DNA of 64,000 nt, from the NCBI GenBank assembly GCA_017307505.1, contig JAFKEE010000019.1:248001-312000 (forward strand), in the 5' to 3' direction. A program made the position numbers and the translations under genes. This DNA is from Acidobacteriota bacterium (GTDB taxonomy: Bacteria; Acidobacteriota; Terriglobia; Bryobacterales; Bryobacteraceae). Positions 3,026 to 27,180 of the stretch are shown here, piece after piece (within the stretch, counting starts at the first letter, position 1; each line of letters begins with the position of its first letter). Below the pieces are notes generated by a model. It had not been told where the DNA came from. It ran no database searches and saw nothing but the letters and a program-made list of their open reading frames with translations.

Positions 3026-6000
3026 CTAGACATTCACAACAACGACAGCGACTTTACCGGACTCGAAGGGGATACCGGCCGTTTGGCCTCCGACCTCCGC
3101 GCCGGTGGGATCCGCTACGCGGACGAAGATTGGGAGCTTGTCTTTCGCGAGATCGGGAAACTCGCCGGCGGGCAGGGTGAAGATGGCAGAGCCCTGATCG
3201 TTGAGGGAGAGGGGCGGCCGGCGCTCTCTCAGTTTGCCGGAAGCGTCATTGACGGAGACAGTGTATCCGCGGGTCGGCTTGCCATCCTTGCGCGCGACGT
3301 TGACCTGCAGGATGAAGGCGTTGGGATCGGTCCTGGAGACTTTGTCGGCGACCTCAAGCCGGTCCTTCGTGCTTTGCGAGATGGAGGCCTGGTAGAGCAG
3401 CCGGGCGCGGCGTTGCGGATCCTCTTCGGCCTTGGCGAGTTTGGCCAGCCGGGCGGCTCGTTTGCTCGGATCCTCCTGGCCTACCGCCTGGACGGTGAGC
3501 GGTGCATCGAGGGCGATGAAGCCGACTCCCGTGACAGGCGCAGGTTGGGCCGTGGGCGGGAAATTGACGGCGGCACACTTGAGCAGGGTGGCGAGCTGAG
3601 GCCGGATCAGGTTGAGATTGATCGCGGTCAAGGCTCCGCTGAAATCCAGGCAGTGGGTGGACTGGTTTCCTGTTGCTGTGAGAAGCTCGCCCTTGGCCCG
3701 GCAGGAGAAACGGAAGGTCTCCACCGGGCTTTCCACGAAGCGGTTATCCGTGATTCGGAGTGTCGTCGCCTCCAGCACCGCGTTGAACTGGATGCGGGCG
3801 TCCTTGGCGATCCGGACACGCAACTGATTCGCATGGAAACCGAGATCGTCCAGGGCCTGGATCCGCACCGACATGGCGGACTCGCCGTCTCCTACGCCTC
3901 CAGTGGGCAACAGCAGCGTGCACTGATTGTGGGCGAACAGAACTTCGCCGCCGACTAGCGGGTTGGCCTGGGCCTGTTCCTCGCCGGCCGGCACGTAGAC
4001 TGCGTAGTTCGACGAGAGGGACGCAAACCCCGCGGCTGAAGACTTGAATTCGTCGACTCCGGCGTTGTTGATATGTACCGTGGCGGCGAGCTTCAGTGCG
4101 CTCGCGTTTATACCAAGCCGTGTCAGGGTGTTTCCGGTGAACCGCATCCGGCCGAATCCGGCCGCATAGACGGTCGTGCCGAAATCGCTGCGTACCTGAT
4201 TGCCGCTGACATCGAGCGCGGGCCAGGAATCGATGAACTGGCCATCGCCGCTGGAGGGCGTCGCGTTGGCCACGTAGATTCCGAGTTGGACTCGCTTTTC
4301 GTTGTCGACACCGTTGCCTTCGATCCGATTGTTCCGGATGACGGCCCCGGCTGCGTTACCCAACAGGATGGCCGTGGTCTCGGCCACCGTATTGCCCACG
4401 ATGTCGTTGTCGAGGATGGAGACGTGGCCCACGTCCAGCAGCTCAATCAGGCCAGGCGCCACGATGGCGGCCCGGGCCGATTTTCCGCGTCCGCTGTTGA
4501 GGATTGCATTGCGTTCGATGCGCAGATCGCGCAGCTCCATATTCATGCCCGAGGAAGAGATCGCCGAGCCAGCAAGTCCCTGAAATCGATTGGAGTCTAT
4601 GACGACCTGCTGGATTGTGGAGAGCTTGCCGTCGTCCGACTTGTCCTGCTCCAGCGTGATGCCGCCCGCCAGGAAGGGTCCGAAAGAGTTGCGCCGGATC
4701 TCCAGGCCTTCGGTGAAGCCTGTGACGAAGAGGCCGCCATCGCCCTCGTGCGAGCCTTCGAGGCCAAGGAACTGGTTGTCGAGAAGCCGGACCTGAAGGC
4801 CGGCCACGGAAACACAGTTGGTCTTTGCCTTATCCAGGGAAACAAATGCATTCTCACGAATCTGGATCTCGCGCCCGTTGGCAACCAGGACGGCGGGCTG
4901 CTCGAGCAACTCCTCAAAGCGGATCCCACTGATGACGACACGATTGCGGTCCTTCAACAGGAACCCGCCCTGCGGCGCGCGAACGATGGTGGCCGGGCCA
5001 CAGCCACGGATGATGACCTTGTCGCGAACCAACGGCAGGAGCCCCGGCAGATCGTAGGTGCCCTGCTGGATGCAGATGATCGCCGTGGGCGTCTGCTCAC
5101 CCACCCAGGGCGGCAGATTCGTAATAGCCTCCACAATGGACTGGAACTGCCCGTGACTGGTCTTCCCGTCGCCCACGGTGAGGACGCAGCAGCAACCGCA
5201 ATCGCCGCCCTCCGGCAGATCGGTGAGCGGCGGGAACTCCGGCGCACAATCCACCACCTGCTTGGGCGTCTGGGCCGTACCGCTGGTCCAATCGATGAGA
5301 GCCAGGCAGCAGTAGTGGCGTTCAATGCCGCGGACCGGTTGCGGAGCATCCACCAGGGCCTGTGGTTCGACATCGCGCGTGGCGACGCGGGCGGACCAGA
5401 TCCAGTAGTCGAGCTCATGGAAGTATTGGACGCCGGTGGATCCGCCATTCTCGTCGAAGAACTTGATGCTCAGGCCGCTGCCATCGTCGAGAGGGTTCGC
5501 GGCGTTGAGGGCGATGGTCTTGGCGGCGGCATCCCAGCGGCGCAGGAACGGCGCGCTGGGCACCACGACCGCGGCGGAGAGCTTCACCGTGAACATTCCG
5601 TCCGGCTTTGCCACGGGGGCTTCGGTAATCTGGGCAACTGCGTTGCGGAAGCCGCCGAGTTCGGTCTCTTCACCGCAGAGTTCGACCCAATCTCCTTTGT
5701 GCAGCTGAATGACCTGGTCGTTGCCTAACGACTGAACCGTGATCTCCGTATTTGGCGGGATCTTCTGTTTGGCGTCCTCCATCACCCGCACAGTGAATGC
5801 GCCATTCTCAGTGGACCACTTGAAGGTGGCAACACCGGCTGTGCCCGGATCATGGATCTGAACGCGGTAGAGGCGATTCTCCGCTCCGCCGTAGCCGCCG
5901 GTTTGCGGCTCTTCGCACGGCTTGTTCACCGGCGGGGTGGAGAGCACGAAGAGCTGCAGTGTGCCGCGCGTCTTCACGGGCCGGTCGGCTTTGAGCTTCG

Positions 6001-6628
6001 TGCAAGCGGCCTCACAATCGGCCACGTTCCCGATGCCGGGATAGAGCTTGACCTGCGCGACGGTCCGGAGGCGGGTGCAGGTATCGGGGCCACCCAGCGC
6101 GCGCTCGCGCACCCACGAGGCATCCACAGGTGCGTCGGGAAAGTCAGCCGTGCGGTTGGAGGCGTCCCGCAGAGCCTCTTCATTCAGCGCCGTGATGTGA
6201 CGGTTCCAAACCTCCAGGTAGACCAGATCCCGGCGGGCTGTCGTGATCTTGGTGGGATCGAAGCCGAGCCACGACCCAGCTCCAAATGCAGCTTCCCATT
6301 CCGCCTTCTGCCATACGGGCCAATCGAGCTGATTGTTGAAATCGCGCTGTTTGGCGTTCTCCGCGAGCAGCCCCCCGGCATAGAACCTACCCTTGGAGAA
6401 CTCGATTTTCGGCCCGGCCGGCACGGTCACTTTGAAGCCGCCGACCGCTGGATCCTTGGGCCGGCCGCACTTGCCGATGACGTCGATGGTCTCCACGGCG
6501 AGGCGGCGCAGCAGGATCTCCACCATGTTGTTCCAATCGGCATCGAGGCCGACACGGCCCTGTTGCTGCAGAACGGCGGAATAGTGGTTCCGGGAATCGA
6601 ACGTCAATCGGCTGAAATCGCCATTCAT
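3026..6628 (-). CDS. eCIS tail-fibre-like protein: DUF6519, parallel beta-helix and Ig-like end
   Basis: This is the last and largest gene of the eCIS operon (1200 residues), probably a surface fibre or receptor-binding appendage on the baseplate. The N-terminal 450 residues match the DUF6519 type (NGDFSRLTFDSRNHYSAVLQ and QGRVGLDADWN at the very start). After a CGCCC cluster near residue 480 come hundreds of residues of short repeating hydrophobic steps rich in N and G (VIIRGCGPATI, VVISGIRFEEL, LEIRRNSFGPF), as in a right-handed parallel beta-helix of the NosD/pectate-lyase type. The last 110 residues look like an Ig-like domain. A GAGGAG lies 7 bases before the ATG. The fibre role is inferred from position and fold; a carbohydrate-active role is an alternative. 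Confidence 0.8.
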   Translation of the reverse strand: MNGDFSRLTFDSRNHYSAVLQQQGRVGLDADWNNMVEILLRRLAVETIDVIGKCGRPKDPAVGGFKVTVPAGPKIEFSKGRFYAGGLLAENAKQRDFNNQLDWPVWQKAEWEAAFGAGSWLGFDPTKITTARRDLVYLEVWNRHITALNEEALRDASNRTADFPDAPVDASWVRERALGGPDTCTRLRTVAQVKLYPGIGNVADCEAACTKLKADRPVKTRGTLQLFVLSTPPVNKPCEEPQTGGYGGAENRLYRVQIHDPGTAGVATFKWSTENGAFTVRVMEDAKQKIPPNTEITVQSLGNDQVIQLHKGDWVELCGEETELGGFRNAVAQITEAPVAKPDGMFTVKLSAAVVVPSAPFLRRWDAAAKTIALNAANPLDDGSGLSIKFFDENGGSTGVQYFHELDYWIWSARVATRDVEPQALVDAPQPVRGIERHYCCLALIDWTSGTAQTPKQVVDCAPEFPPLTDLPEGGDCGCCCVLTVGDGKTSHGQFQSIVEAITNLPPWVGEQTPTAIICIQQGTYDLPGLLPLVRDKVIIRGCGPATIVRAPQGGFLLKDRNRVVISGIRFEELLEQPAVLVANGREIQIRENAFVSLDKAKTNCVSVAGLQVRLLDNQFLGLEGSHEGDGGLFVTGFTEGLEIRRNSFGPFLAGGITLEQDKSDDGKLSTIQQVVIDSNRFQGLAGSAISSSGMNMELRDLRIERNAILNSGRGKSARAAIVAPGLIELLDVGHVSILDNDIVGNTVAETTAILLGNAAGAVIRNNRIEGNGVDNEKRVQLGIYVANATPSSGDGQFIDSWPALDVSGNQVRSDFGTTVYAAGFGRMRFTGNTLTRLGINASALKLAATVHINNAGVDEFKSSAAGFASLSSNYAVYVPAGEEQAQANPLVGGEVLFAHNQCTLLLPTGGVGDGESAMSVRIQALDDLGFHANQLRVRIAKDARIQFNAVLEATTLRITDNRFVESPVETFRFSCRAKGELLTATGNQSTHCLDFSGALTAINLNLIRPQLATLLKCAAVNFPPTAQPAPVTGVGFIALDAPLTVQAVGQEDPSKRAARLAKLAKAEEDPQRRARLLYQASISQSTKDRLEVADKVSRTDPNAFILQVNVARKDGKPTRGYTVSVNDASGKLRERRPPLSLNDQGSAIFTLPAGEFPDLAKDKLPIFVRVADPTGAEVGGQTAGIPFESGKVAVVVVNV

Positions 6629-6643: not shown

Positions 6644-8614
6644 TCAGGTCACAAAAACGATGGCCGGCTGCAGGCCGGCGGGCAGGTACTCAGACAGCCG
6701 CAGGGTGAGGTGCTCCAGGCGGCGCGGAGCTCCTAGCGATGCCCAGACTCCGATTTCGCGGCCGTCGGTTCCTCCGGCAGAGATAGCCGTTGGACAATCG
6801 AGCGCCAGTTGCGTGTATCCGGGCGCACTGAAAAGCGTGGTGGTAAAAACAGGTGGCGGGCTGGACGGAGCACATTCATAGCGCCGGGGCACATCCGAAC
6901 CGGGTCCGAAGTAAGAGAAGCGCACGCAGCCTTCCTGGCGCATGAGAACCTTGGTCGTGCCCCGAACGAGCGCCTCGCTCGCCTCCAGCTTGATGCAGCT
7001 GAAGTCGCCCAGGATGGTGGAGCGCAGCACGACTGCCGGAGGTCCCCCTGCCAGCGCGGGTTGCGCGAACGGCTGAGCGTCCACTATGGAGTCGCTGAGG
7101 GTGAAACAGTCCATTGCGTCAGGCAGCTTGAGCAGGCCGGTGATGCAGTGATCGAGGGCCAACTGAACGCCGTTGCCGGGTGACTCCACCTGCAGAGTGA
7201 CGCCGGCCGGGCGGGCGGTGACACCGTCCTCGCCGGTGCCGCCGCCGGGGTCGAGGGTACAGTCCTGGAAGCTCACGGTCTCTATGCCCTTCGGGATGAG
7301 CAGCGTGCGGCCGGCTCCCGTGAACAGGATGCCGCTGACTTCCAGGTGCTTCCCGGCGGTGGGTCCTACAAAGGCCTGCTGTGTGTTGGAAAGTACGATG
7401 GTGGGCCGCTGGCCGCTGGCGGCACGCACGATGAGGGTGGTGAACGTGCCTGGAAGAACCCAATTCTTCGGCTCGGCGTAGGTCCGGCTATCTGTGATCT
7501 CGACGATGCGAACGGCCGCGGTTGAGGCGGCGAGTTGAGCCAAGGCATCGCTTACGTTCTTCACGGCTCCGTTCTTGGAGACTTGAACGATTGCCGCGCC
7601 AGGGTTGCTGTAGCGGCGCTCATAGGCCCCGCCGCCTACATTGCCACTGAATCCGAAGTAGTAATCCACTGTGACTACGGTTCCGGCCTTCAACGGAATA
7701 TCGGAGCCCACGAGGATCCTGCCCAGCTTCACATCCACTGCGATCTTTGTGGTGTCCGGCGACACCCAGGCACACAGGTTCGCGGGGATTACGGGCCTGG
7801 CCGTGGGCACGCCGTTTTCGTAGATCGTGAAGCCCAGGGGGGTGTGGATGTAGGCAGCCGGGTCTTCCCGGAACCTCACGGGCGATATCGGAGCCATCAC
7901 GTTGTCTTCCCCTGTACGCGGCCAGTCCGCGCTGACTCCGCGCTCAAGCGGTTCGGGTGATTGGAAGAGAGGAAGGGGCTGCCCCAAGGCGTTGAAGTGA
8001 TAGGCTCCGGGCTTCGCCGCCACCGGCTTGGCCTCGACACCTCGCAGGGGGATGGCGCGCAACCGCCAGAGGAAGAAGCCGATCTTGCGAATGTTGTGCC
8101 AGCCCCGTTTCTGTGTTGAGGGTCGCAGATCGGCAGTGTGCTGGCAGCGATCGAAGGCGCCGCCGATTCGTGCCAGGGCCGAGCGGTCCCGCAGATCCAC
8201 AGTATTCAGGCAGTCCATCCGGAAGTGGATCATGCTCTGGTTCCACTGCAGCCGTTCAAAGAATTCGGCCACGCGGCAGGAGTAGCCGGTGACGTCGCCG
8301 GCCAGGGTTTCCAGTTGCGGGACGGTCCCCTTGCGGCGGCGGTAAGCGATGGTGCGGGCCACTTCACGGCGATTGTTCGCCGGGTCATCGTCAATGAGAT
8401 TCAGGGCAATGAGATCGGCCAGGTACGGTAGCAGCGCATCGTCGCAGGTCTCCGCGAAGAAGCTGTTCCAGAGCCGGGTGATGTCGTCGTAAACGATCTG
8501 GCCCTGTTTTTCAGCGGCGGAGAGCAGGGCTTCCAGCGGTTTGCCGCGTTCGTAGTCGGAACGACGCAGGTAATCGGGCAGCAGGCTGTAGAGATCGGTC
8601 GATCGCGGCGGCAT
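6644..8614 (-). CDS. eCIS phage-tail-protein-I-like baseplate protein with C-terminal beta-helix
   Basis: This 656-residue protein probably sits at the edge of the baseplate and joins it to the fibre. The N-terminal 150 residues (YSLLPDYLRRSD, FAETCDDALLPYLADLI, RREVARTIAYRRRKGTVPQLETLA) match the tail protein I type domain (TIGR02242) found in eCIS loci. From about residue 430 the sequence turns into beta-helix-like repeats (LEVSGILFTGAGRTLLI, ETVSFQDCTLDPGG) similar to those in the next gene. An open frame continues upstream to 8803 but overlaps the preceding gene and has no domain character, so the ATG at 8614 is chosen. It starts 2 bases after the upstream stop. Confidence 0.85.
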   Translation of the reverse strand: MPPRSTDLYSLLPDYLRRSDYERGKPLEALLSAAEKQGQIVYDDITRLWNSFFAETCDDALLPYLADLIALNLIDDDPANNRREVARTIAYRRRKGTVPQLETLAGDVTGYSCRVAEFFERLQWNQSMIHFRMDCLNTVDLRDRSALARIGGAFDRCQHTADLRPSTQKRGWHNIRKIGFFLWRLRAIPLRGVEAKPVAAKPGAYHFNALGQPLPLFQSPEPLERGVSADWPRTGEDNVMAPISPVRFREDPAAYIHTPLGFTIYENGVPTARPVIPANLCAWVSPDTTKIAVDVKLGRILVGSDIPLKAGTVVTVDYYFGFSGNVGGGAYERRYSNPGAAIVQVSKNGAVKNVSDALAQLAASTAAVRIVEITDSRTYAEPKNWVLPGTFTTLIVRAASGQRPTIVLSNTQQAFVGPTAGKHLEVSGILFTGAGRTLLIPKGIETVSFQDCTLDPGGGTGEDGVTARPAGVTLQVESPGNGVQLALDHCITGLLKLPDAMDCFTLSDSIVDAQPFAQPALAGGPPAVVLRSTILGDFSCIKLEASEALVRGTTKVLMRQEGCVRFSYFGPGSDVPRRYECAPSSPPPVFTTTLFSAPGYTQLALDCPTAISAGGTDGREIGVWASLGAPRRLEHLTLRLSEYLPAGLQPAIVFVT

Positions 8615-8616
8615 GG

Positions 8617-11088
8617 CTAGACCACCTCCACGTCGGCGATTCCGCCCTGGTAGATCACGTCGATGCTTGGGGTGGTGAGGGAACCGTCCAGCGACGGCCA
8701 GCCGATCTCGTCCGGGCCTACGAAGACCGCGTCCATCCTGTCCTCGCCAGGTGGGAAACCATGATTGGCAAGCGTGGTGGAGAAGCCGCGGAGGAAGACC
8801 CATTCGACCCCGGGGACGGATTGGAACTGCGCCAGGATGGCGCTTTGAAAGACGGTCTCGCCGAGGGGCATTCGATCAAAGCTGAGGAACCCGGCCGTGG
8901 TGCCGCAGGCTGCGTCCACCGCGGCCATCACTGCGGACTGTTTCCAACCCTCCATTACGTGCACAGTGACGCGCAAGACGAACGGGACCTTGGCGGCCTC
9001 TGAGATGGAGAGGGGCACATTGGGATCCCGGTGCAGATCAAGGTAGGCTCGGAGATCCTTGGACACCGCGTTCAGCGGGGCTCCTCCGGGCGGCGACACC
9101 GTCAGTTTGACGCCCCGCCTGGATCCGAAATCGGCCCACGACGCCTTCGCCTTGCCACCCCGGAAGTACTTCAGGGTGAGCGCATCATAGTCTTTCAGCG
9201 AGACTGCGCGGTCGAAGGTGACTACCGTCGCGGGGGCAGCCTGCCGGATGGAATCGCCGGTCTCCGGATCGGCTCCACCGGTGGCAGGCGCCGGATTCGT
9301 TACGGATTTCAGACCCGGGCGTGATTGCAGAATCGCCGTGATGGTGCCGGTTGGCGCGTTGCCTGCAGCGCCCAAGCCCTTGCGCATTGCGGCCCGTACA
9401 TTTTGCGAACCAGTCGGCACACGGCGGCCCGTACGGCCATCACCGAAGCGGACCTGCTCTTTGCCCGCATCATCGACGGCCGTCTGGAAGATCGCATCGG
9501 AGGGGCCGCGGGCATAGAAGCTGTCCACCTCGTGCCACTCCTGGTTGTTGACGTAGACGTGCAGAGTGCTGGCTGCCCCGGAAGCAGCCGCGGGGTCGTC
9601 GATATAGGACGTAGGCGCAACCGGCAGATTGAACACTTGCCATTCCTTGGAGGCGTCCCCACTGCCGAGGACCTTTTCTTCCTGTGTCTCGCCGTGAGTC
9701 GCCGGGACAACATTGCCGTAAATGATGGTGCTGGACACCGGGCAATCAAACTCGAGCTTCGGAGTGATGAGCATGGAATGGGGCGGGCCGTCCGCCTCCG
9801 TCATCACCTGCGTCACTTGAACGAGTTGGGTCTTTTCGCCGCATTTGATCAGCAGACGGGAGTTCTTCGACAGACCGGACACGTCCAGCAGATAGAGCTT
9901 CGTGGAGTTCTTGGAAACGGTCTCCGCCCGGTTGTTGGGGAAGAAGACCAGATCCTCACCGACCAGCTCAAACAACTGGTAGTGGCGGATGTCGGAGCAA
10001 CTGTCGAGGTTGCTGTCGAACGTCAGGGTGGTACAAGCCCCCGTGATTGGACCTCGGGAGGAACTCCCCTGGCTCACCGATTGCACGGTGCGCACATAGG
10101 AGAGGACGCCGCTGCCGTTGTCGTGGACGACCAGCATCCGGCTGCCGCTGGAGATGTTTTCGAAGGTGCCGTCCAGCGCAACCGTCTTTGCACTGGTGAA
10201 GCTGAAGTCCGTGTTGGAGACTGTGAAGACAGGCGGATTGCTGTTGTCGGGCACCAGATACTTGTCGGGCGAGGCCGCGCCGAAGAGGCGGAACTTGCGG
10301 CCCATGCGCGCCACTTTGAGGCTGCTGACGGCCTTGCCGCCCAGATTCCCCAGCCATTCGACGCGCTTGCCCAGGGTGGTGGGTGTCACCTTGGTTACGG
10401 TTGTCTCGTATCGCTCAGCCGGGCTCTCCTTGTAGAACAGCAGTTTGGTGCCGGGCGCCACGGCCGGGCCGCCGGAGTCCGACTTCATTTCGGCGGACTT
10501 CGTGAACGACGCCGCAACCGGCGCCCCCATGAGGAGGGGCTGATTCGCGGCCGTACTGATGGACAGGGCCTCGGATGTCTCGAACGTTGCGGGCTGACCG
10601 CCGTCGGGCGGTACGGATTGCAGTTTCGTCCCCGCAGGCACCGTGGTACGAGTATCCTTGTCGGCTGTGAAGGCGACATAGACGGTCGCGCTCTTCCCCC
10701 GCGCCGGTTTGTAACCCAGCAGCATGCCCTGGCGTGCGAGAGACTCGCGGAGTATGGCTGTCCGAGGAAAGGCCTCGTTGACGATTGCCTGCTGATAGAA
10801 CGTCAGCACATCGCAGACATACGCCCACAGGTCCAGCGTAGCCACACCAAAGTCGGTCTCGTCCCGGGTTGTCAGCTGGTAGCGGGCCGCGGGATTGATG
10901 GGATCCTGGCTCACCACCGGCCGCTCTACCAGCGCGTCCAGCATCGCCTGACGGAAGGTGCTGAATGTGCCGGCGCGATACCGGAGCGAGAGCTGGCCGG
11001 GAGGATTGCGAAGGGAGAGAGGAGTTGACGGCACGCGCGGATCGCAGGCCGTGCAGGGATCCTTCTCGAAGTAGTTGCAGCCGCTCAT
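8617..11088 (-). CDS. eCIS baseplate J-like protein (second copy)
   Basis: This 823-residue protein is the second of two consecutive putative baseplate assembly proteins of the TIGR02243 type, distant relatives of phage P2 J, T4 gp6 and Afp11. The family start is visible (FSTFRQAMLDAL, DLWAYVCDVLTFYQQAIVNEAF, RQGMLLGYKPARG). The C-terminal half has the J-type core (VRFGDGRTGRRVPTG, VTFDRAVSLKDYDALTLKYF and YLDLHRDPNVPL). The middle 250-300 residues are beta-rich and poorly conserved. The ATG overlaps the stop of the preceding gene in an ATGA arrangement. Such proteins usually form the wedge ring around the hub. Confidence 0.88.
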   Translation of the reverse strand: MSGCNYFEKDPCTACDPRVPSTPLSLRNPPGQLSLRYRAGTFSTFRQAMLDALVERPVVSQDPINPAARYQLTTRDETDFGVATLDLWAYVCDVLTFYQQAIVNEAFPRTAILRESLARQGMLLGYKPARGKSATVYVAFTADKDTRTTVPAGTKLQSVPPDGGQPATFETSEALSISTAANQPLLMGAPVAASFTKSAEMKSDSGGPAVAPGTKLLFYKESPAERYETTVTKVTPTTLGKRVEWLGNLGGKAVSSLKVARMGRKFRLFGAASPDKYLVPDNSNPPVFTVSNTDFSFTSAKTVALDGTFENISSGSRMLVVHDNGSGVLSYVRTVQSVSQGSSSRGPITGACTTLTFDSNLDSCSDIRHYQLFELVGEDLVFFPNNRAETVSKNSTKLYLLDVSGLSKNSRLLIKCGEKTQLVQVTQVMTEADGPPHSMLITPKLEFDCPVSSTIIYGNVVPATHGETQEEKVLGSGDASKEWQVFNLPVAPTSYIDDPAAASGAASTLHVYVNNQEWHEVDSFYARGPSDAIFQTAVDDAGKEQVRFGDGRTGRRVPTGSQNVRAAMRKGLGAAGNAPTGTITAILQSRPGLKSVTNPAPATGGADPETGDSIRQAAPATVVTFDRAVSLKDYDALTLKYFRGGKAKASWADFGSRRGVKLTVSPPGGAPLNAVSKDLRAYLDLHRDPNVPLSISEAAKVPFVLRVTVHVMEGWKQSAVMAAVDAACGTTAGFLSFDRMPLGETVFQSAILAQFQSVPGVEWVFLRGFSTTLANHGFPPGEDRMDAVFVGPDEIGWPSLDGSLTTPSIDVIYQGGIADVEVV

Positions 11089-19694: not shown

Positions 19695-21589
19695 GCCGGA
19701 GCCCCCCGCCGCTCGATCTCGGACTCCGCAAATGTCGCCGGTTTCCCCAGCTTCTCCAACTCCCGCCGCGCGGCTTTGGCGATCATTGCAGCTGTCACCA
19801 CACCGCCATCCGCAGCCGCCATGTAGCTCGCCGCCAGCGCGATGTTCTTGATGCTCGCCCCCGTGACCGCCAGCCGGTCTGCCAGCGAGTCGAGATCCAC
19901 ACCTTGCATGCGAATCGCAGCCGGCAGGCTGGCCCGCCACAATTCCTTGCGCAACCCCCGATCGGGAGCCGGGAAGTCCACCACGAAGCGGAACCGGCGC
20001 AAGAAGGCCTCATCGATGGCATCACGCCGGTTGGTCGCCAGCAGGAGCACCGCGTGGTCAGCCTCTTCCACCAGTTGCAGCAAGTAGCTCACCTGAATGT
20101 TGGCGAACCGGTCGTGGCTGTCCTTCACTTCGGTGCGCTTGCCAAAAAATGCGTCTGCTTCGTCGAACAACAGCACGGAGCGAGACCGCTCGCACTCCTG
20201 CACCGCCTCGCGCAGGATCTTCTCCGTCTCGCCGATGTATTTGCTCACCGTGCGGGGAATGCTGATCCGGTACAATTCCCGACCGAGGTGCGCCGCGATT
20301 ACTTCGGCGGACATCGTCTTGCCTGTACCGCTGGGCCCCGCGAACAGGGCGCAGACGCCGCGGCCGCGGGGCATTTTTCGCCCGAAGCCGTAGGTCTCCA
20401 TCACCTTCTCGCGTTGCTCCACCTGCTGGCAGAGCTCGTGGAGCTTGCCCAGCGTCTCGGCAGGCAGAATCAGGTCAGACCATCCATTCACGAGCGTGAC
20501 GGGGTCGGCAAATTCCGCCATGCGATGCCGGGCATGCGACGCACACGCCTGCAGCGCGTCACTGTCGGCCAAGGCGCGGCCATGGGCCCAGGCGGCAGTG
20601 GCCGCTGTCTGGCGACACTCCAGAATTTCCGAAGGCGAGAGGTGATACTGCCGCGACAGGTACTCGGCCGCGCCTGCGAAATCCGCGGCCCAAAGCTGCC
20701 GTTGTTCCGGTGCCCCGGGCTGGGGCACTTCCACTTCCAGCCACTCCGCCCCTGAGACTTCCAGGGGTTTGCTGAGCTTCTCCTTGCGGACGAGAAACGT
20801 AATAGCCCCGGAATCCCGCAAAAGCCGGATCCAGGCTGCGTCGGGTTCGGCCGGCACCCGCAGCAGAAGAGCCGATTGGGTCAGCAATCCTTCGCGTGCC
20901 AAGGCCACGGCGGTGGACCCTGCCAGCATCGCCGCGTCGGCGCACAGCAGGGGCAACCCTATCCCCGCAACAGCCTGTGCTGCGAAGGCTTCGAGGTCGG
21001 CCGCCATAGAGCCGTACAGGTGGACAAATAACGGCCCATTCACAGCCGCCAACCTGGGTGCCAGCCAGTTGCCCGTCGCAGCCGGAGGGATGATGCGCAG
21101 CATCGGGGCGATGCGTTCATCGGGCAGCGTGCGGCCCAGCAAGGCGTCAGCCACGCGCCGGTCCACGCGCAGGCTGCGATCCGGCAGCGGCAGCCCCGCA
21201 TCTTCCAGGTGCAGGAGCTCAAATCGAAGCAGGTTTCCATCGGTTCGTAGCGAGTCCCGGGACGATAGCCACTCCTGCCGGTCGCGGCAGAACAGGCGCC
21301 AGGCCAGGCTCACCTGCGGCCAGCGGGAACTCACACCCTGCGCCTGCGCAATCAGGGTCCCGAAGGCTTCGTCGATCTCCGGTGCCGCCGCCAGCAGCAA
21401 CGCGTGGCGCTCGAAACTGTTCAGCCGGAACATCGCGCAGATCCGATGAAATGCGACGCCCGCCGGCTGCTGAGACAAGAACTCCAGCGCCTCACCCGCG
21501 GGCGCGGGCTCCCCCTCCAGCCGCTGCCGCAACCAGCCCAGCGCTGCATCCAGGAACGCTTCGTTGGTGTCGAGAAGCACTGCCATCAC
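19691..21589 (-). CDS. eCIS AAA+ ATPase (Afp15/Pvc15-like)
   Basis: This is a 632-residue cytoplasmic ATPase of the type present in almost all eCIS loci, thought to act in assembly or payload loading. The C-terminal half is a clear AAA+ domain: Walker A GPSGTGKT near residue 417, Walker B SVLLFDEADAFFGKRTEV, sensor 1 LLATNRRDAIDEAFLRRFRF with arginine fingers, and a sensor-2 helix region. The N-terminal 380 residues hold a divergent winged-helix/ATPase-like region as in Pvc15. It is coupled to the genes on either side (ATGA overlap with both DUF4255 and DUF4157 genes). Confidence 0.92.
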   Translation of the reverse strand: MMAVLLDTNEAFLDAALGWLRQRLEGEPAPAGEALEFLSQQPAGVAFHRICAMFRLNSFERHALLLAAAPEIDEAFGTLIAQAQGVSSRWPQVSLAWRLFCRDRQEWLSSRDSLRTDGNLLRFELLHLEDAGLPLPDRSLRVDRRVADALLGRTLPDERIAPMLRIIPPAATGNWLAPRLAAVNGPLFVHLYGSMAADLEAFAAQAVAGIGLPLLCADAAMLAGSTAVALAREGLLTQSALLLRVPAEPDAAWIRLLRDSGAITFLVRKEKLSKPLEVSGAEWLEVEVPQPGAPEQRQLWAADFAGAAEYLSRQYHLSPSEILECRQTAATAAWAHGRALADSDALQACASHARHRMAEFADPVTLVNGWSDLILPAETLGKLHELCQQVEQREKVMETYGFGRKMPRGRGVCALFAGPSGTGKTMSAEVIAAHLGRELYRISIPRTVSKYIGETEKILREAVQECERSRSVLLFDEADAFFGKRTEVKDSHDRFANIQVSYLLQLVEEADHAVLLLATNRRDAIDEAFLRRFRFVVDFPAPDRGLRKELWRASLPAAIRMQGVDLDSLADRLAVTGASIKNIALAASYMAAADGGVVTAAMIAKAARRELEKLGKPATFAESEIERRGAPA

Positions 21590-22878
21590 GTCACCGTAAA
21601 CACGAGATTCGGATTCGGCTCAGGAGCGCCGGTCGTCGCATTGGGCCGCCACGTCCGGCTCTCTACTCCGTTGGCCACGACGCGCACGGGCAGCGTCTGG
21701 CCCGTCTTCGGCAGGTTGGCCGCATTGGGGTCGGGTGTATTCAGCTTCACGGTCAACTTGGCGGGCAACGCCGTGAAGGTGATGTCCGCCTTCGGAATGA
21801 CATACGAACCGAAGAGCACCACGGGCACCAGCGGACTCCCGGTGCCAACAGCCGCCGGATCCGCACCCAGCAGCTTGCCCGTGATGTCCAAGGTCACTGA
21901 GCCGTCGAACTTGCCCGATGCCACGGTGATTGCGTCCACCCCCGGAGCCAGGTTCAACGTGAGCTGATTCGATGCCAGTTCGTGTCCCGTGAACGGCGAC
22001 ACGCGGGCCTCCACCTTCTTCGGTCCCGGCCGGAACTTCGTAGCGTCATTTGGAATCTGGAAGGTCAGCCCGGCTGGCGTTTTGGTGATCGTCATCAGCT
22101 CCGGCGCGGCGGGGAAGCCGGAGTTCACGCCATCGCTCACGTACACCGCAATGGTCGGATCGTTGAGCTTTTCCCCGGCCAGCCTGATGGTCTCCAGCGG
22201 CAGAACGGTCAAGGGGTCAAGACTCTCCAGGTAGGGCGCGGCGGAAGCCGACGGCGAGACGGCGATGACCGGCGTCAGTACAGGCAGGGCGGTCACCTTC
22301 GGCTTCGAAGGTTCGATCCGGATCACCGATACCTGATACGCCACGGACCGCTGGTAATCCTCCCGGAACGCGGTCCAGAGCTTGGTGATGTCATCAATAT
22401 CGAACTGCCGCGGCGTGATTCGCAGCGGCTCGTACTCGTTCTTGAGCCCCTCATCCAGCACCACTCCGCCGCCGTGCAACTTGGGAGTCTTCGACGTAAT
22501 AATTGGCTCGTCGTGCAGGACGCGCATCGCGTCCGCAAGGATCTCCTGTGCGTCGAGCTCCGGCAGGCTGTCGGCGGGCGTGCCCGATGGGGCGCCCGGA
22601 TCCGTCAGGTTGCCGCCGCTGTAGCTGGTGATGAGGTAGCCCAGCTCCAGCGCCAGTGGTGCGAAGCCGTCCGGCGCCGGAGGCTTGCGCGGGTCCTGCT
22701 CGTTGCGAAGATACGGAGTCTCTTTGACGTGGTAGAGGAAGATGTTCAGCCGCGGCGAAGCGGGGGTGGGCTTGGGCATGCCAAACGTAAAGACCACGTC
22801 CGCACGCCGCTCCATGCGGTCGGCGAGCAGCCGGGCCAGGGTCAATGTCACGCGTTGGATGCCGTTGATGCCCGCCAT
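21586..22878 (-). CDS. eCIS DUF4255/Pvc16-like tail terminator with extra C-terminal domains
   Basis: The N-terminal 190 residues match DUF4255 (Pvc16_N), the tail-terminator protein that caps the distal end of sheath and tube in Afp16/PVC particles. Supporting stretches are SPRLNIFLYHVKETPYLRN, PLALELGYLITSY, LGYLIT followed by DAQEILADAMRVLHD, and LTKLWTAFREDYQRSVAYQVSVIRI-type spacing. The protein is 430 residues, longer than the simple terminators: residues 215-430 look like two Ig/TIG-like beta domains (LPLETIRLAGEKLNDPTIAVYVSDG). The extension might decorate the terminal cap. It starts 3 bases after the proline-rich gene. Confidence 0.88.
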   Translation of the reverse strand: MAGINGIQRVTLTLARLLADRMERRADVVFTFGMPKPTPASPRLNIFLYHVKETPYLRNEQDPRKPPAPDGFAPLALELGYLITSYSGGNLTDPGAPSGTPADSLPELDAQEILADAMRVLHDEPIITSKTPKLHGGGVVLDEGLKNEYEPLRITPRQFDIDDITKLWTAFREDYQRSVAYQVSVIRIEPSKPKVTALPVLTPVIAVSPSASAAPYLESLDPLTVLPLETIRLAGEKLNDPTIAVYVSDGVNSGFPAAPELMTITKTPAGLTFQIPNDATKFRPGPKKVEARVSPFTGHELASNQLTLNLAPGVDAITVASGKFDGSVTLDITGKLLGADPAAVGTGSPLVPVVLFGSYVIPKADITFTALPAKLTVKLNTPDPNAANLPKTGQTLPVRVVANGVESRTWRPNATTGAPEPNPNLVFTVT

Positions 22879-22881: not shown

Positions 22882-23652
22882 TTACCTCGACACGGTCCGG
22901 GCCAGGATGTAGTCTGCGAAGCCGCCAGGTGCGGGTGAGGCGACCGGTGCCGGTGGAGGCGCTGGAGGATTCTCCACTCGAACGGTGACTTGGTCGATGC
23001 GCACCTCCAGTTTTTCCGGAGGGCTGGCCGTCCGGGGCAACGCCACGCCGCGCACTCGCTCACGAACGATCCGTGTCACCGTCCTCTCCACTTCCCTGCG
23101 TGCTTCAGGAGGCAGTGGAACCGAGGCCTTTGGCAGCTCCACATGAACAGGTATTTGTGTGAAGTCCGTTCGGGCGGGAGCAACGGGCTGCGGCGCGGGC
23201 GTCATCTCGAGCGACGATCCCTCCTCCACTTCGACGCGGTCCTCCGGAGCCATCTGCTCCCTCGGCAACTCTGACCTTCGCTCCACTTCACGCACCACGG
23301 TCCGCTCTTCCACCCGATGCTTCTCCCTGATCTGGACGGACGAAACCACCCGCTCCGGCAGGGCCGCTGGAGGCTGCCCCGCAGTCACGATGCGCTGCAC
23401 GTAGACCTGCGGCGCCGGCTGAGCCAGTTGCGCGGACTGCGCCTCCTCGGGCGGCCGGCTGGCGACAGTGCGCTCTCTCGGAACTTCGGGGATTGAGGGT
23501 GTCCGGGTCTGCTCCGTCTGCTGCCCTAATCCGGGTGCCGGTGCGGCCGCCGGCCAGCGTGAAACGCGCCTTGCGGTTCCACGCAACTGCCCCGCCCTGC
23601 TCCCGAGCGGAGCCTGTGCGTGTCCGATTGCTTTGGCCAGGTATCCTTTCAC
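22882..23652 (-). CDS. Proline/glutamate-rich eCIS locus protein of unknown function
   Basis: I do not recognise this 256-residue protein. The first 20 residues could form a short amphipathic helix (MKGYLAKAIGHAQAPLG). The rest is low-complexity, rich in P, E, R and V, with charged blocks such as EKHRVEERTVVREVERR and PPEARREVERTVTRIVRERVRG, then KLEVRIDQVTVRVENPPAPP and a last hydrophobic GGFADYILARTVSR. It looks largely disordered with short amphipathic segments. Its place between the zinc-ribbon protein and the tail terminator, in a tightly packed operon, argues for a real role in particle assembly, such as a scaffold or linker. It is far too short and proline-rich to be an ordinary tape measure. 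Confidence 0.75.
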   Translation of the reverse strand: MKGYLAKAIGHAQAPLGSRAGQLRGTARRVSRWPAAAPAPGLGQQTEQTRTPSIPEVPRERTVASRPPEEAQSAQLAQPAPQVYVQRIVTAGQPPAALPERVVSSVQIREKHRVEERTVVREVERRSELPREQMAPEDRVEVEEGSSLEMTPAPQPVAPARTDFTQIPVHVELPKASVPLPPEARREVERTVTRIVRERVRGVALPRTASPPEKLEVRIDQVTVRVENPPAPPPAPVASPAPGGFADYILARTVSR

Positions 23653-23658
23653 GGCAGG

Positions 23659-24444
23659 TCACGCCTCCACAGGCTCTTCCACGTCACAGAAGTCCAGATA
23701 CACCGCACGACGCGACTCCGGGATGCTGAGGATTTCGTCCTCGCTCCAGTGATAGTTCCGCGCCAGGGTATGGACGTCCGCCATCAGCCGTCGCACCCGG
23801 CTTCGCAGCCAGCCTACCCACGACAGCTTTAGATCGAACTCGGCCTGCAGCATCTGCCCGCACCCCGCGCAGGGGCCAACCAGCACGATCTCGCCCAGCG
23901 GGTCGTGCGCCGCAAGCGCCTCCTCCACCACGTCCACCCACGGTGCAGCTTCCTCCCTCGAACTACCCAGACAGAGCGCTGCCACGTCCGTACTGTCCGC
24001 GGCCTTCTCCAACATCTCCGCGGAAGGCAGCCGGCAATTTCGCGTCCAGGCGCCAAGTTGCACCTCGACGCCCTCCACACGGGGCGGCAGCTCAATCATC
24101 GACAGATCCATTTCGAACTCAGACCCTTCCCCGCAAGCCTCACAATGCGCTTCCGCCCGGGCCGGGCCGCCCCCGTCCAGCAGCCACACCGCCCGGATCA
24201 TGGCGTGACGGTCCGCCAGCCCCAGCGAGTGCAGCTCGCTCCAGACGAGTTGCGGTGACGCGATGGCAAGCAGACTGGTCACGACATGCTCCAGCGGTTG
24301 TCCAAAATCGACGTTCCAGATTGCGCGGACGTTTGCGGCGATGCCTTGCACGCCCACCTGGCACGGACCGGTGTCCGGCCGCCCTGGCGAAGGCAGATCG
24401 ATCAGGGCCTCACTTTTCCGTGGGCTCGGTGACGTTGGTGTCAC
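23659..24444 (-). CDS. eCIS zinc-ribbon baseplate-assembly protein (T4 gp26/gp51-like family)
   Basis: This 261-residue protein resembles the T4_baseplate-type proteins of eCIS loci, which are thought to act in hub assembly. Two CxxC pairs (CEACGEG near residue 105 and CAGCGQ near residue 200) could form a split zinc ribbon. The end, DVHTLARNYHWSEDEILSIPESRR followed by VYLDF, is the family's C-terminal signature. The GTG at 24444 is chosen: it has a GAGGG 8 bases upstream and overlaps the tube gene by 35 bases. ATGs at 24504 and 24498 have no ribosome-binding site and would add arginine/serine-rich residues that look like out-of-frame tube sequence. Confidence 0.75.
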   Translation of the reverse strand: MTPTSPSPRKSEALIDLPSPGRPDTGPCQVGVQGIAANVRAIWNVDFGQPLEHVVTSLLAIASPQLVWSELHSLGLADRHAMIRAVWLLDGGGPARAEAHCEACGEGSEFEMDLSMIELPPRVEGVEVQLGAWTRNCRLPSAEMLEKAADSTDVAALCLGSSREEAAPWVDVVEEALAAHDPLGEIVLVGPCAGCGQMLQAEFDLKLSWVGWLRSRVRRLMADVHTLARNYHWSEDEILSIPESRRAVYLDFCDVEEPVEA

Positions 24445-24925
24445 GTTCCCAACCCTCGCACTCGATCTTGATCGACTCGATCGCCACGGCGTTCGCATTG
24501 GCATCGAGTTCCGGCAGGGCCTGGTATTCGCTCACCCAGCAGCGAAAGATGTTGTACGAAATCGCCTTCTGCCCTGCCTCGTTGAAGACGTCCAGGATCA
24601 GGTTCTTTCTGAAACTCTTCAATGCGATTTCAGCGCCGAAGGCCGCGCCGTGGAGGAATGCCAGATTCGCCCAGTTCTCGAAGTCGGTGTCGTGAGTCAC
24701 ACCCCGGGATAACGTGATGGCATCGTAGTCGGTGCGGCCCGGAGCCTTGTGCGGATTGTTGGGATCGCCGCCTTCTCTGTGCTTCACCACTTCGGTAGTT
24801 CGCTTCAGCGGAGTCATCTTGGACAGCCCCGCAATGTAATCGGCGCCGTCTTCGAACTTGAGGCGGAACTTGAAATTCTTATACGGGTCTCGGCGCGTTG
24901 CCTTGTTGACGACAAAGGATGGCAT
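24410..24925 (-). CDS. eCIS inner tube protein (gp19/Hcp-like)
   Basis: This is a 171-residue inner-tube subunit of the T4 gp19/Afp1/Hcp fold, which stacks as hexamers inside the sheath. It shows the standard family pattern: DPYKNFKFRLKFEDGADYIAGLSK, then TTEVVKHREGGDPNNPHKAPG and YDAITLSRGVTHDTDFENWAN, and the C-terminal YNIFRCWVSEYQALPELDANANAVAIESIKIECEGWERD-type stretch. Only one tube gene is present, whereas Afp and PVC carry two or three. It lies 22 bases downstream of the sheath gene, as in nearly all contractile systems. Confidence 0.95.
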   Translation of the reverse strand: MPSFVVNKATRRDPYKNFKFRLKFEDGADYIAGLSKMTPLKRTTEVVKHREGGDPNNPHKAPGRTDYDAITLSRGVTHDTDFENWANLAFLHGAAFGAEIALKSFRKNLILDVFNEAGQKAISYNIFRCWVSEYQALPELDANANAVAIESIKIECEGWERDTNVTEPTEK

Positions 24926-24947
24926 GGTGTCTCAACTCCTTCCCGAA

Positions 24948-26516
24948 CTAGACCGGGACCTTTCCGGCCATTTGGCTGATCTTGATGACGACGAACTCGA
25001 CAGGCTTGAGCGGAGCGAAGCCCACCAGAATGTTCACAATGCCCTTGTTGATGTCGTCCTGGGTCGTGGTTTCCGAGTCGCATTTCACGAAGTACGCTTC
25101 TTTGGGCGTCTGTCCCTGGAACGCACCCTGGCGGAACAGGGAGTTCATGAATGCGCCGAAGTTCAGCCGGATCTGGGCCCAGAGCGGTTCGTCGTTCGGC
25201 TCGAAGACAATCCACTTCGACGCCCGGAACAGGCTCTCTTCAATGAAGAGCGCTGTGCGCCGCACCGGGATGTACTTCCACTCCGAAGCCTGAGCGTCCG
25301 CGCCTGCCAGCGTCCGCGCCCCCCAGCATGTGTGGCCGAGGATCGGGAACGTCCTCAGGCAGTTGATCGCTATCGGATTCAGGTCGCCGTTTTCCAGGTC
25401 GGTCAGCGTATACTGCAGACCCTGGGCGCCCAGCAACTTCGCTTCCTCGCCCGCGGGTGCCTTCCACACACCTCGATTCGTATCGATGCGCGCGTAGACT
25501 CCAGCCATTGCCCCCGAGGGCGCGAACAGCCTCGGCCGGTTCTCCTTCAAGGGATCAGAGAACAGGATTCTCGGCCAGTAGATGACGGAGTTCTTGCTTC
25601 TGAAGGGATCCACGGCGGCTTTGCCCGTATCCACCGCAGCCTTGTCTTTCCAGCCTGCCGGCGGATCGTAGATCAGGATGGCGCGTTTGGTTTCCGCATA
25701 CACCACGGCCGCCGACCACACCGCGTTCCCGATATCCGGAGCGCCCGGCTTCTCGCCTTCGGAGTAAGGAGGAATCACCAGGATCGTGACAATCTCCGCA
25801 TCTTCCAGCGCGTACATGCCCTTCTTCGACGCCGGCCCGCCGCCCGGTGCCAGGTCCGTGTCGCCCAGCGGCCCTCCGTCGCTGGGAGTCCCGCTGTCGA
25901 TCGTATTGAAGTCCGCCACGGCGTTCGGCCGGTCCGGCGGCACCGTGCCCGTTACCGTCACCAGGTTTGACTCGTTGGCGACGACCGACTGCACGAATCG
26001 GGGCTTGTTCGGGTCGCCAGTTACATTGCGGTACTCCTCGCGAATCACGGTCACTTCGTTCGTGATCGGATCCGTGATCTTCAGCACCACAGTGAGGTTG
26101 TACTCATCTGCCTGCTGCGGGACGCGTGTGTTGTGGTCAACGGTAAAGAACAGGTCCTTCGACCAGGTGCCCGGCGTCTTCGCCGAAAGAAACAGGTTGC
26201 CGGTGGGAGTGGGCAGCTTGTAGGTCACGGCCGCGGCAGCAGCGGTTGCCGTGTCCACCACGCGCACCACATAGGCATCCGCGCCACCGTTCAGAAAGTA
26301 CTGCTGGACGGCGTACCCCAACTCGCTCATGCTCCACAGCCCGCCGAACGTTCGTTCGAAATCGGTGAAGTTGTGGATTCGGATCGGCTGGTTCAGCGGA
26401 CCGCGCTTGGCCCGTCCCACGAAGCCAGCCACGGCCGTCGGCACCGCGACAATCGTTCTTACGGGACTGGGGACTTCTTCGATATAGACGCCAGGATAGT
26501 TCAGAGTGCTCGGCAT
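24948..26516 (-). CDS. eCIS contractile sheath protein
   Basis: This is a 522-residue tail sheath subunit of the Afp2/Pvc2 class. The N-terminus is diagnostic: LNYPGVYIEEVPSPVRTIV, VPTAVAGFVGRAKRGP, then FTDFERTFGGLWSMSELGYAVQQYF and GGADAYVVRV. The C-terminal assembly domain carries WKYIPVRRTALFIEESLF, FEPNDEPLWAQIRLNFGAFM, LFRQGAFQGQTPKEAYFVKCD and INKGIVNILVGFAPLKPVEFVVIKI, the strands that interlock neighbouring sheath subunits. The middle 150 residues are an exposed insertion domain. Only a single sheath gene is found, unlike the three of Afp/PVC. Confidence 0.96.
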   Translation of the reverse strand: MPSTLNYPGVYIEEVPSPVRTIVAVPTAVAGFVGRAKRGPLNQPIRIHNFTDFERTFGGLWSMSELGYAVQQYFLNGGADAYVVRVVDTATAAAAAVTYKLPTPTGNLFLSAKTPGTWSKDLFFTVDHNTRVPQQADEYNLTVVLKITDPITNEVTVIREEYRNVTGDPNKPRFVQSVVANESNLVTVTGTVPPDRPNAVADFNTIDSGTPSDGGPLGDTDLAPGGGPASKKGMYALEDAEIVTILVIPPYSEGEKPGAPDIGNAVWSAAVVYAETKRAILIYDPPAGWKDKAAVDTGKAAVDPFRSKNSVIYWPRILFSDPLKENRPRLFAPSGAMAGVYARIDTNRGVWKAPAGEEAKLLGAQGLQYTLTDLENGDLNPIAINCLRTFPILGHTCWGARTLAGADAQASEWKYIPVRRTALFIEESLFRASKWIVFEPNDEPLWAQIRLNFGAFMNSLFRQGAFQGQTPKEAYFVKCDSETTTQDDINKGIVNILVGFAPLKPVEFVVIKISQMAGKVPV

Positions 26517-26543
26517 GATGGCTCCTTTCGCGGTTCAGTGCCC

Positions 26544-26918
26544 TCAACTCTTGCGGAGGACGAAAACATCCACCGTCACATCGGCGGTGGTGCCATTGGC
26601 AATCGAGATGGGACCCGCGGCCGCGCCGGCTTTCACTGCCAGGTCACCGCCCGATAGCACCTGCGGCTGCGTCAATTTGTAGGCGGAGCCTGCTGGGTCG
26701 AACTTGTATGTCAGCAGCGCGTCATACTTGCTCGACGACATGATCAGCAGCAGCAGCTTGTCCGCCGCGGCCGGCTGCAGGTCGACGCTCTTGTTCCCGG
26801 CCTTCGGTACGGTCACCGTGATGCGGTCGAGACCGTCGGCGCTGATCTGCCAGCTCACTCCGACATTGGGCCCGCCCGAAACCTGCACTCCTAGCGTGGC
26901 GTTCGCACTAATCGGCAT
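26544..26918 (-). CDS. Small beta-rich protein of the eCIS operon, unknown function
   Basis: I do not recognise this 124-residue protein. It is rich in alternating hydrophobic residues (GVSWQISADGLDRITVTVPK, DKLLLLIMSSSKYDALLTYKF, TADVTVDVFVLRKS), which suggests a single beta-sandwich domain, without signal peptide or membrane segment. The ATG at 26918 is preferred over 26924 because the GGAGG lies 9 bases before it and only 3 bases before the other. It overlaps the first gene of the operon by 11 bases and precedes the sheath gene by 27 bases. A cap or surface component of the particle is possible, but this is a guess from position. Confidence 0.75.
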   Translation of the reverse strand: MPISANATLGVQVSGGPNVGVSWQISADGLDRITVTVPKAGNKSVDLQPAAADKLLLLIMSSSKYDALLTYKFDPAGSAYKLTQPQVLSGGDLAVKAGAAAGPISIANGTTADVTVDVFVLRKS

Positions 26919-27180
26919 CGTCATCTCCCTCCAATTGGACTTCCGCGGAATAAGGGCCGGCGAGGTCCACCGGATACAGCTTCTGAAGCGGAACTATCAC
27001 TTTCGTCCGGTCGCTGAGTTCCACAACTCCAAATGCCTCCGACTGCACACCTGAACGCGTAATGCTCGACAACACACCCAGCAGCCGCTCCCCTTCTCCG
27101 AGGGTTTGCAGCAATTCGCGCGCCCCCGGCAGGTAGACATCCTGGATCTGAAATGCGACGTTCTCACCTTTGCGCGCCAC
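26908..27180 (-). CDS. Small acidic protein, first gene of the eCIS operon, unknown function
   Basis: This 90-residue protein begins with GTG, with AAAGGA about 9 bases upstream. It has no motif I can name. It is soluble, mixed alpha/beta, with a short core (LQTLGEGERLLGVLSSITRS, AFGVVELSDRTKVIVPLQKLYPVDL) and an acidic tail (EGDDDAD). The GxxEAFGVVELSDRTKVIVPL part resembles a small SH3-like barrel. As the first gene after the probable promoter it could be an early regulator or assembly factor. It overlaps the next gene, which supports it being a true coding sequence. Confidence 0.7.
   Translation of the reverse strand: MARKGENVAFQIQDVYLPGARELLQTLGEGERLLGVLSSITRSGVQSEAFGVVELSDRTKVIVPLQKLYPVDLAGPYSAEVQLEGDDDAD

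What the first reader, a model, noticed from the sequence alone, without database searches (positions are those of the whole stretch)
3026..27180. A compact 19-gene eCIS locus with single sheath and single tube genes
The sheath, tube, hub, spike, PAAR-like tip, gp25, two J-type baseplate proteins, AAA+ ATPase and DUF4255 terminator are all recognisable from motifs, and the genes are fused by 1-4 base overlaps into one transcription unit. Afp/PVC loci have three sheath and two to three tube genes; here there is one of each. No lysis, integrase, capsid or terminase genes flank it, which argues against a prophage. It ends in two large beta-helix proteins not found in classical Afp.
Basis: partly seen in the sequence, partly recalled or inferred. 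Interest (0 to 1): 0.85.

Follow-up and report, generated by a model that had tools for sequence, protein, structure and literature searches.

The report
Phage-tail-like injector carrying nuclease-like cargo
A bacterium carries a complete set of genes for a syringe-like injector derived from a phage tail; the injector is of a known, widespread type, but the protein it probably fires and the switch that may turn it on look undescribed.

Summary
In detail: 19 minus-strand genes at 3026-27180 encode a contractile injection system with one sheath and one gp19 tube. No capsid, portal, terminase or integrase gene appeared among the flanking genes scanned. The implied novelty does not hold: of the 80 best named relatives, 76 also show one sheath and one tube in the stretch held. 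The locus fits the 'tme-like' group of Streptomyces davawensis (PMC11126660); DUF6519 with beta-helix is a catalogued fibre type (PMC12923769). Verdict: new member of a known kind. Toxicity, firing and regulation are inferred.

The parts
27358..28530 (-). sigma-54 activator (enhancer-binding protein) with HTH_8; no receiver domain found
   Evidence: Sigma54_activat E 1.1e-57, HTH_8 E 1.2e-6; homologues in the held stretch of 17 of 90 loci
27300..27315 (-). 16-bp inverted repeat CTGCA-N6-TGCAG, candidate activator site
   Evidence: only match in the 64-kb window, 0.07 expected, pattern chosen after seeing it; the looser CTGC-N8-GCAG has 8 matches in the window, 2.84 expected, two in the same gap of G005 and one in L124
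27210..27225 (-). weak candidate sigma-54 promoter (TGG-N10-TGCC)
   Evidence: TGG and TGCCAA identical in G005 within a diverged gap; not the window's best site by the ad hoc score
26908..27180 (-). 90-aa protein, unknown
   Evidence: no Pfam or NCBIfam match; homologues in 2 of 90 loci
26544..26924 (-). 126-aa protein, predicted all-beta with one helix
   Evidence: homologues in 14 of 90 loci; AlphaFold2 mean pLDDT 85.7; no convincing PDB sequence relative
24948..26516 (-). sheath
   Evidence: PF17482 E 1.4e-10; best PDB match 8bky, E 5.1e-74
24410..24925 (-). tube
   Evidence: Phage_T4_gp19 E 1.4e-37; TIGR02241 E 2.4e-38
23659..24354 (-). CxxC protein, possible tail-assembly/baseplate-type protein; start codon uncertain
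   Evidence: weak DUF6760 and T4_baseplate matches, E 0.18 and 0.25; homologues in 84 of 90 loci
22882..23652 (-). Pro-rich, probably disordered protein; candidate ruler
   Evidence: 58 of 63 equivalent gaps in named relatives hold an open frame with an IGRxEV-like motif near its end; the window copy fails that pattern
21586..22878 (-). DUF4255 / Pvc16 cap protein
   Evidence: PF14065 E 2.5e-30
19691..21586 (-). AAA+ ATPase (Afp15 type)
   Evidence: AAA E 6.5e-27 and WHD E 1.4e-25
16608..19694 (-). cargo candidate, 1028 aa: eCIS_core (res 69-146), HNH-like motif (from res 294), beta-rich module (about res 497-1028)
   Evidence: PF13699 E 2.1e-30
15965..16597 (-). CIS_tube / Afp7-like tube initiator
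   Evidence: PF19266 E 0.0094, below cut-off; homologues in 36 of 90 loci
15680..15961 (-). 93-aa protein (the label LysM in my scripts is recalled; no library match)
   Evidence: no Pfam match; homologues in 28 of 90 loci
14585..15676 (-). hub
   Evidence: weak VgrG_rel match E 1.1e-5, far below cut-off; position
14055..14585 (-). spike
   Evidence: Phage_base_V E 4.2e-25
13723..14055 (-). PAAR-like tip
   Evidence: DUF4280 E 3.8e-5, 24.7 bits against a cut-off of 26.3
13358..13726 (-). gp25 baseplate protein
   Evidence: PF04965 E 1.7e-14
11085..13361 (-). baseplate J-type protein 1
   Evidence: TIGR02243 E 2.1e-70
8617..11088 (-). baseplate J-type protein 2
   Evidence: TIGR02243 E 1.7e-65
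6644..8614 (-). Tail_P2_I protein with a long C-terminal part
3026..6628 (-). DUF6519 (eBAP5-type) fibre with beta-helix
   Evidence: DUF6519 E 5.8e-34, Beta_helix E 2e-10

Best explanation
The locus encodes a contractile injector of the 'tme-like' CIS group. Shown by sequence: one sheath and one gp19 tube, a spike separate from its hub, a PAAR-like tip, a gp25/J baseplate, a DUF4255 cap, an AAA+ ATPase and a DUF6519 fibre. Inferred: the 1028-aa DUF4157 protein is the cargo, held near tube initiator and spike as shown for Tme in S. davawensis, pushed out by sheath contraction, and acting as a nuclease through its HNH-like motif, with the beta-rich C-terminal module as a common carrier (packing or membrane passage). 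Inferred: the neighbouring sigma-54 activator switches the operon on. Whether particles are released or act inside the producer is left open.
For: Gene content and order. The order sheath-tube-CxxC-Pvc16-ATPase-DUF4157-CIS_tube-93aa-hub-spike-PAAR-gp25-J recurs in relatives as far as their stretches were held, and in a Streptomyces locus with a 2280-aa DUF4157 protein. DUF4157 genes fill the slot between ATPase and CIS_tube in 22 of the 27 named loci where both neighbours were held; 5 slots have none. Tme, a DUF4157 protein just upstream of the baseplate genes, co-purified with spike and tube initiator and its C-terminal domain is an endonuclease (PMC11126660, passages and sections 6 and 12). 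In 9 aligned sequences, chosen by the motif DHxxExQ, a further G, N, N and G are invariant. Promoter signal in activator-linked loci.
Against: The cargo lacks Tme's hallmarks: one hydrophobic stretch against six in the Streptomyces relative, no RGH motif. No library names the HNH-like part; the profile's PDB matches are aconitases (E 0.08, taken as chance), others, and a Cas9 stretch (E 0.69), none significant. The D, H, E and Q of the motif are invariant by selection, and window and G005 are near-duplicates. The structure model is poor (mean pLDDT 51.6, the HNH part below 50), and no fold search ran. Window and G005 lack a consensus sigma-54 site. No immunity gene was looked for. The S. davawensis sequence was not in the tree.
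Confidence: 0.8

Rival explanations
1. Remnant of a contractile prophage or an R-type tailocin.
For: The structural parts are tail-like; phage sheaths match, at up to 38% identity over the C-terminal part in the 15 rows listed of 235 records. In both trees one phage sheath is no farther than some CIS sheaths.
Against: ATPase, DUF4255 cap and DUF4157 are eCIS marks (PMC8213781 passages); no capsid, terminase, portal or integrase among the flanking genes scanned, which are not every open frame.
Confidence: 0.03
2. Same machine, but kept inside the cell (cytoplasmic self-killing as in S. coelicolor, or membrane-anchored as in haloarchaea) and not released. This is not exclusive of the best explanation, which leaves release open, so the odds do not add to one.
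For: The closest solved sheath is the S. coelicolor one; clade IId systems were imaged inside cells (section 23 of PMC12998442).
Against: A DUF6519 fibre gene is present, whereas a conventional fibre gene is absent in S. coelicolor (PMC10066040 passages). A crude hydrophobicity scan of the operon gave isolated single stretches only, no clear anchor; the rest of the genome was not searched for one.
Confidence: 0.35
3. The 1028-aa protein is a tape measure or tube-filling structural part, and the HNH-like motif is incidental.
For: It sits immediately upstream of the baseplate genes, the Tme position, and Tme is related to tape measures; mostly-strand model.
Against: DUF4157 marks effectors; the N, N and G residues kept beyond the selecting motif; relatives vary that part while keeping the beta module. 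The Pro-rich gene 22882-23652 is another ruler candidate. Neither was tested.
Confidence: 0.15

Closest known systems
Tme-type CIS of Streptomyces davawensis (PMC11126660; passages, sections 6 and 12)
   Same: DUF4157 protein just upstream of tube initiator, spike and tip; sheath clade with Proteobacteria, Chloroflexota and Actinobacteria; synteny as described
   Different: Tme is about 2247 aa with predicted membrane helices, coiled coil and an EndA-type C-terminus; here 1028 aa, HNH-like motif in the middle, beta-rich C-terminus. No direct sequence comparison was possible.
CISSc of S. coelicolor (clade IId, PMC10066040; passages)
   Same: sheath cis2 is the closest solved sheath, E 5.1e-74; no typical tape measure gene
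   Different: two tube homologues (cis1a, cis1b); sheath outside the window's 93-member group; no conventional fibre gene
Haloarchaeal CIS/T6SS (clade IIa, PMC11566945; passages)
   Same: cis2 sheath; DUF4157 proteins within and beside the cluster, some toxic
   Different: membrane-bound, with an associated membrane protein; sheath distance 2.3
Afp / PVC
   Same: homologous core parts
   Different: three sheath genes; Afp baseplate-V gene of 529 aa, where here hub and spike are two genes
eBAP5 / DUF6519 fibres (PMC12923769; passages)
   Same: DUF6519 N-terminus, beta-helix further on, gene downstream of J and Tail_P2_I
   Different: no difference seen at this level

Membership tests
eCIS | sheath, tube, spike, baseplate, ATPase, DUF4255 in one cluster | tested here: met
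eCIS | no phage structural genes within about 10 kb | tested here: met
   selected flanking genes scanned, not every open frame (beyond the window); two weak phage-labelled matches in a chemoreceptor and a sigma factor taken as chance
eCIS | no T6SS membrane complex (TssM) nearby | not tested
   no TssM search was made; none among the genes scanned
Tme-like CIS group | DUF4157 near the N-terminus of the cargo gene | tested here: met
   residues 69-146, E 2.1e-30; HELAH at 135
Tme-like CIS group | cargo gene immediately upstream of tube initiator and baseplate genes; conserved synteny | tested here: met
Tme-like CIS group | sheath clade apart from CISSc, with Proteobacteria, Chloroflexota and Actinobacteria | tested here: inconclusive
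   93-member group with such members, support 0.966 in FastTree, same members in an unfinished IQ-TREE run without support; S. davawensis not included, and sampling was by similarity to the window
Tme effector itself | largest ORF of the cluster | tested here: not met
   1028 aa; DUF6519 protein is 1200 aa
Tme effector itself | multiple membrane helices | tested here: not met
   one hydrophobic stretch by a simple scan
Tme effector itself | EndA-type DRGH motif | tested here: not met
   neither DRGH nor RGH in the window cargo
Tme effector itself | remote homology to phage tape measures | not tested
   PHROGs was not run on the cargo
HNH nuclease | D-H ... N ... N motif (recalled) | tested here: met
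HNH nuclease | significant match to a curated HNH family or fold | tested here: not met
   no Pfam or NCBIfam match; PDB profile search not significant; fold search did not run
Afp/PVC | three sheath genes | tested here: not met
   one
Membrane-anchored T6SS-like CIS | membrane anchor protein | tested here: inconclusive
   no clear anchor in the operon by hydrophobicity; rest of genome not searched
sigma-54 regulated operon | activator gene, upstream sites and -24/-12 promoter | tested here: inconclusive
   activator and inverted repeat present; promoter weak in the window, strong in 11 of 18 activator-linked loci

The most novel reading that the evidence does not exclude
The window holds one case of an undescribed class of CIS cargo: a roughly 470-residue beta-rich carrier module, shared across phyla and found chiefly in CIS loci, joined to exchangeable nuclease-like parts. 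In addition, a subset of this CIS group is a sigma-54 regulon with its own dedicated activator, so expression is tied to a specific signal; and the Pro-rich protein with conserved ends is the missing tape measure.
Probability: 0.35. Interest if true: 0.65.

Novelty: new member of a known kind. Interest (0 to 1): 0.4.

Why it matters
The injector is ordinary for its group. The cargo module would give a sequence handle for finding effectors of a very large CIS group whose payloads are mostly unannotated, and the activator link would name a switch for part of that group, making expression in culture testable.

Tried and rejected
Prophage or tailocin: rejected on gene content, flanks and tree, with the caveats given. 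Novelty from single sheath/tube: rejected. Beta-module relatives in viral contigs: 11 pattern matches, none confirmed. Sigma-54 consensus over the whole window: 22 matches against 32.4 expected, no signal by itself. PDB profile searches with the HNH-like part, beta module (one designed protein, E 0.03) and 126-aa protein: nothing convincing. One weak beta-module match (G265, E 6e-4) was not found again in its 12-kb stretch, which holds no recognised eCIS gene. An IQ-TREE run timed out; its tree has no support values, holds the same 93-member group, and places one phage sheath (GiJojo) among CIS sheaths, so the deep order is unreliable.

Weaknesses of my controls. The sigma-54 score is ad hoc, with weights set by me from a recalled consensus after I had seen the hits; it takes the best site in up to 900 bp, over three thresholds, with 20 shuffles. 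At the lowest threshold (13.5) the figures are 14 of 18 against 2.5 expected, and 12 of 70 against 9.6. I have no control for how often an activator gene lies near any operon; one of the 17 activator loci (G036) is a several-sheath locus outside the group, and window and G005 are near-duplicates. The inverted-repeat and IGRxEV patterns were also chosen after looking; an earlier pattern for the Pro-rich protein (DY[LIV] near the end) fitted 26 of 63, and the 58 of 63 count looked at three frames per gap while the background counted single ORFs.
Full report
WHAT IS THERE. The window lies in a 9.39-Mb genome. On the minus strand, 3026-27180 holds 19 genes: 90 aa, 126 aa, sheath, tube, a CxxC protein, a Pro-rich protein, DUF4255 cap, AAA+ ATPase, 1028-aa DUF4157 protein, CIS_tube, a 93-aa protein, hub, spike, PAAR-like tip, gp25, two J proteins, Tail_P2_I protein and DUF6519/beta-helix protein. 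A sigma-54 activator gene precedes them at 27358-28530.

NOT A PROPHAGE. The flanking genes scanned with a match are chemotaxis and two-component genes, a desaturase, a nitronate-monooxygenase-like protein and a DUF4097 protein on the right; on the left a DUF1275 protein, then, mostly beyond the window, an outer-membrane barrel, a porin, sugar- and alcohol-metabolism enzymes and a second sigma-54 activator. Weak phage-labelled matches: phiKZ_IP in a chemoreceptor (below cut-off), a tape-measure PHROG in a sigma factor (E 0.0007), and PHROGs of unknown function on kinases and regulators. The sheath matches 235 of 50,697 phage records, all under 60% identity, 6 of them covering at least 80% of the query.

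HOW COMMON IT IS. 30 of 101 related genomes, own included, have a sheath match; many of these are weak or in several-sheath loci. 76 of these 80 held stretches have one sheath and one tube; two have one sheath and no tube hit, one has two and one has three sheaths. In a sheath C-terminal tree of 118 sequences the window sits in a 93-member group (FastTree support 0.966) apart from the S. coelicolor, Deinococcus, haloarchaeal, Nostoc-plasmid, Afp/PVC, Parabacteroides and phage sheaths. An unfinished IQ-TREE run gives the same 93 members. The group was sampled by similarity to the window, so its apartness is partly built in.

WHICH KNOWN GROUP. PMC11126660 (passages, sections 6 and 12) describes CIS from distant phyla, apart from CISSc, with a long DUF4157 effector gene, Tme, just upstream of the baseplate genes. 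Streptomyces sp. IMTB 2501 (L126, L165) has that pattern, with a 2280-aa DUF4157 protein, six hydrophobic stretches and the window's gene order, though no DRGH motif near its end. I could not compare with S. davawensis directly. The window's cargo shares slot and DUF4157 with Tme but not its length, membrane stretches or EndA motif.

THE CARGO. Residues 69-146 are eCIS_core. The motif starting at residue 294 (DHIIELQVGG...NNL...RNQTAG) fits the recalled HNH signature. The pattern DHxxExQxGG occurs in 5 of 87 DUF4157-profile ORFs and in none of the other 10,788 ORFs of the set. No library recognises it. The C-terminal part (residues 561-1028) has no Pfam or NCBIfam match above threshold (a GldM_3rd match at E 0.08 is below cut-off). 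Relatives of it: 6 of 297 phylum genomes, own included, two of them weak; 3 of 4 genomes reached through loci, two of which were already known; 4 plasmid records, three of them Cereibacter. Of 10 full proteins examined besides the window, 8 lie beside three or more recognised eCIS genes and 2 (L140, L143) beside an ATPase hit only. Seven of the 10 carry DHxxExQ (G005, L105, L127, L140, L141, L144, L147). L142 has a different middle part; L146 has no DUF4157 that I could see and an RGH-containing C-terminal part; L143 has neither motif (by eye). A three-sequence AlphaFold2 model shows consecutive strands, with one short helix, from about cargo residue 497 to 997, block pLDDT about 40-82, the HNH part unmodelled. 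No description of this module was found, within these limits: the listings (1 paper; 9 papers), and passages of PMC11297309, PMC8213781, PMC13277306 and PMC11126660.

THE SWITCH. Activator homologues, of a large family, lie in the held stretch of 17 of 90 loci, 16 of the 17 within 2.4 kb of the sheath and 15 on its strand. By an ad hoc score, 11 of 18 activator loci (window included) have a near-consensus sigma-54 site within 900 bp upstream of the sheath, against 0.4 expected (maximum 2 in 20 shuffles), 0 of 70 loci without the activator, and 0 of 18 on the reverse strand. Against it: window and G005 are among the 7 that miss. Their gap instead shares a weak TGG-N10-TGCC core and CTGC-N8-GCAG inverted repeats, also seen in L124, a pattern that is not rare in the window (8 matches, 2.84 expected). 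Searches listed no paper that ties sigma-54 to an eCIS, but only 10 of 65 and 15 of 1,007 papers were listed; sigma-54 control of T6SS, a relative, is known (passages of PMC12316311).

OTHER PARTS. DUF6519 is the eBAP5 fibre anchor, often with beta-helix tips (passages of PMC12923769). The 126-aa protein is a confident all-beta model with homologues in 14 of 90 loci. In 63 gaps between the CxxC gene and the cap gene of named loci, 58 hold an open frame (232-1135 residues) with an IGRxEV-like motif near its end, against 86 of 2,653 other unassigned ORFs, some of which may be the same gene; the window's copy fails the pattern. Phage tails keep the tape measure in about this position (recalled), so it is a ruler candidate.

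HOW IT PROBABLY WORKS. Activator on; baseplate, tube and sheath assemble on the hub; the DUF4157 protein is loaded next to tube initiator and spike; the fibre binds a target; the sheath contracts; the cargo is pushed out and acts on nucleic acid. The parts are shown by sequence; every step of this sequence of events is inferred from characterised relatives.

VERDICT. A well-formed member of a known group; the single-sheath claim is ordinary. The cargo module and the sigma-54 link are the parts worth following.

Noticed in passing
window 22882-23652: Pro-rich, probably disordered gene product; open frames in the same place in relatives run from 232 to 1135 residues with conserved short end motifs; candidate tape measure.
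   Followed up: partly
window 26544-26924: 126-aa predicted all-beta protein directly upstream of the sheath, homologues in 14 of 90 loci; function unknown.
   Followed up: partly
L060, L059, L057, L054 upstream of the sigma-54 sites: Repeats of the type TGGGT...ACCCA, by eye, suggesting that different activators use different upstream sites.
   Followed up: no
L146 (Cereibacter azotoformans plasmid pORIO4): Beta-module protein without visible DUF4157, with an RGH-containing C-terminal part, beside CIS genes.
   Followed up: partly
L082 (Hormoscilla sp. GUM202): Three sheath hits in one locus of this otherwise mostly single-sheath group.
   Followed up: no
window 33304-41789: Chemosensory cluster (CheW, CheA-type kinase, MCP, response regulator) near the injector genes.
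   Followed up: no
L166 2865-3911 (about 13 kb left of the window start): A second sigma-54 activator gene in the same genome region.
   Followed up: no
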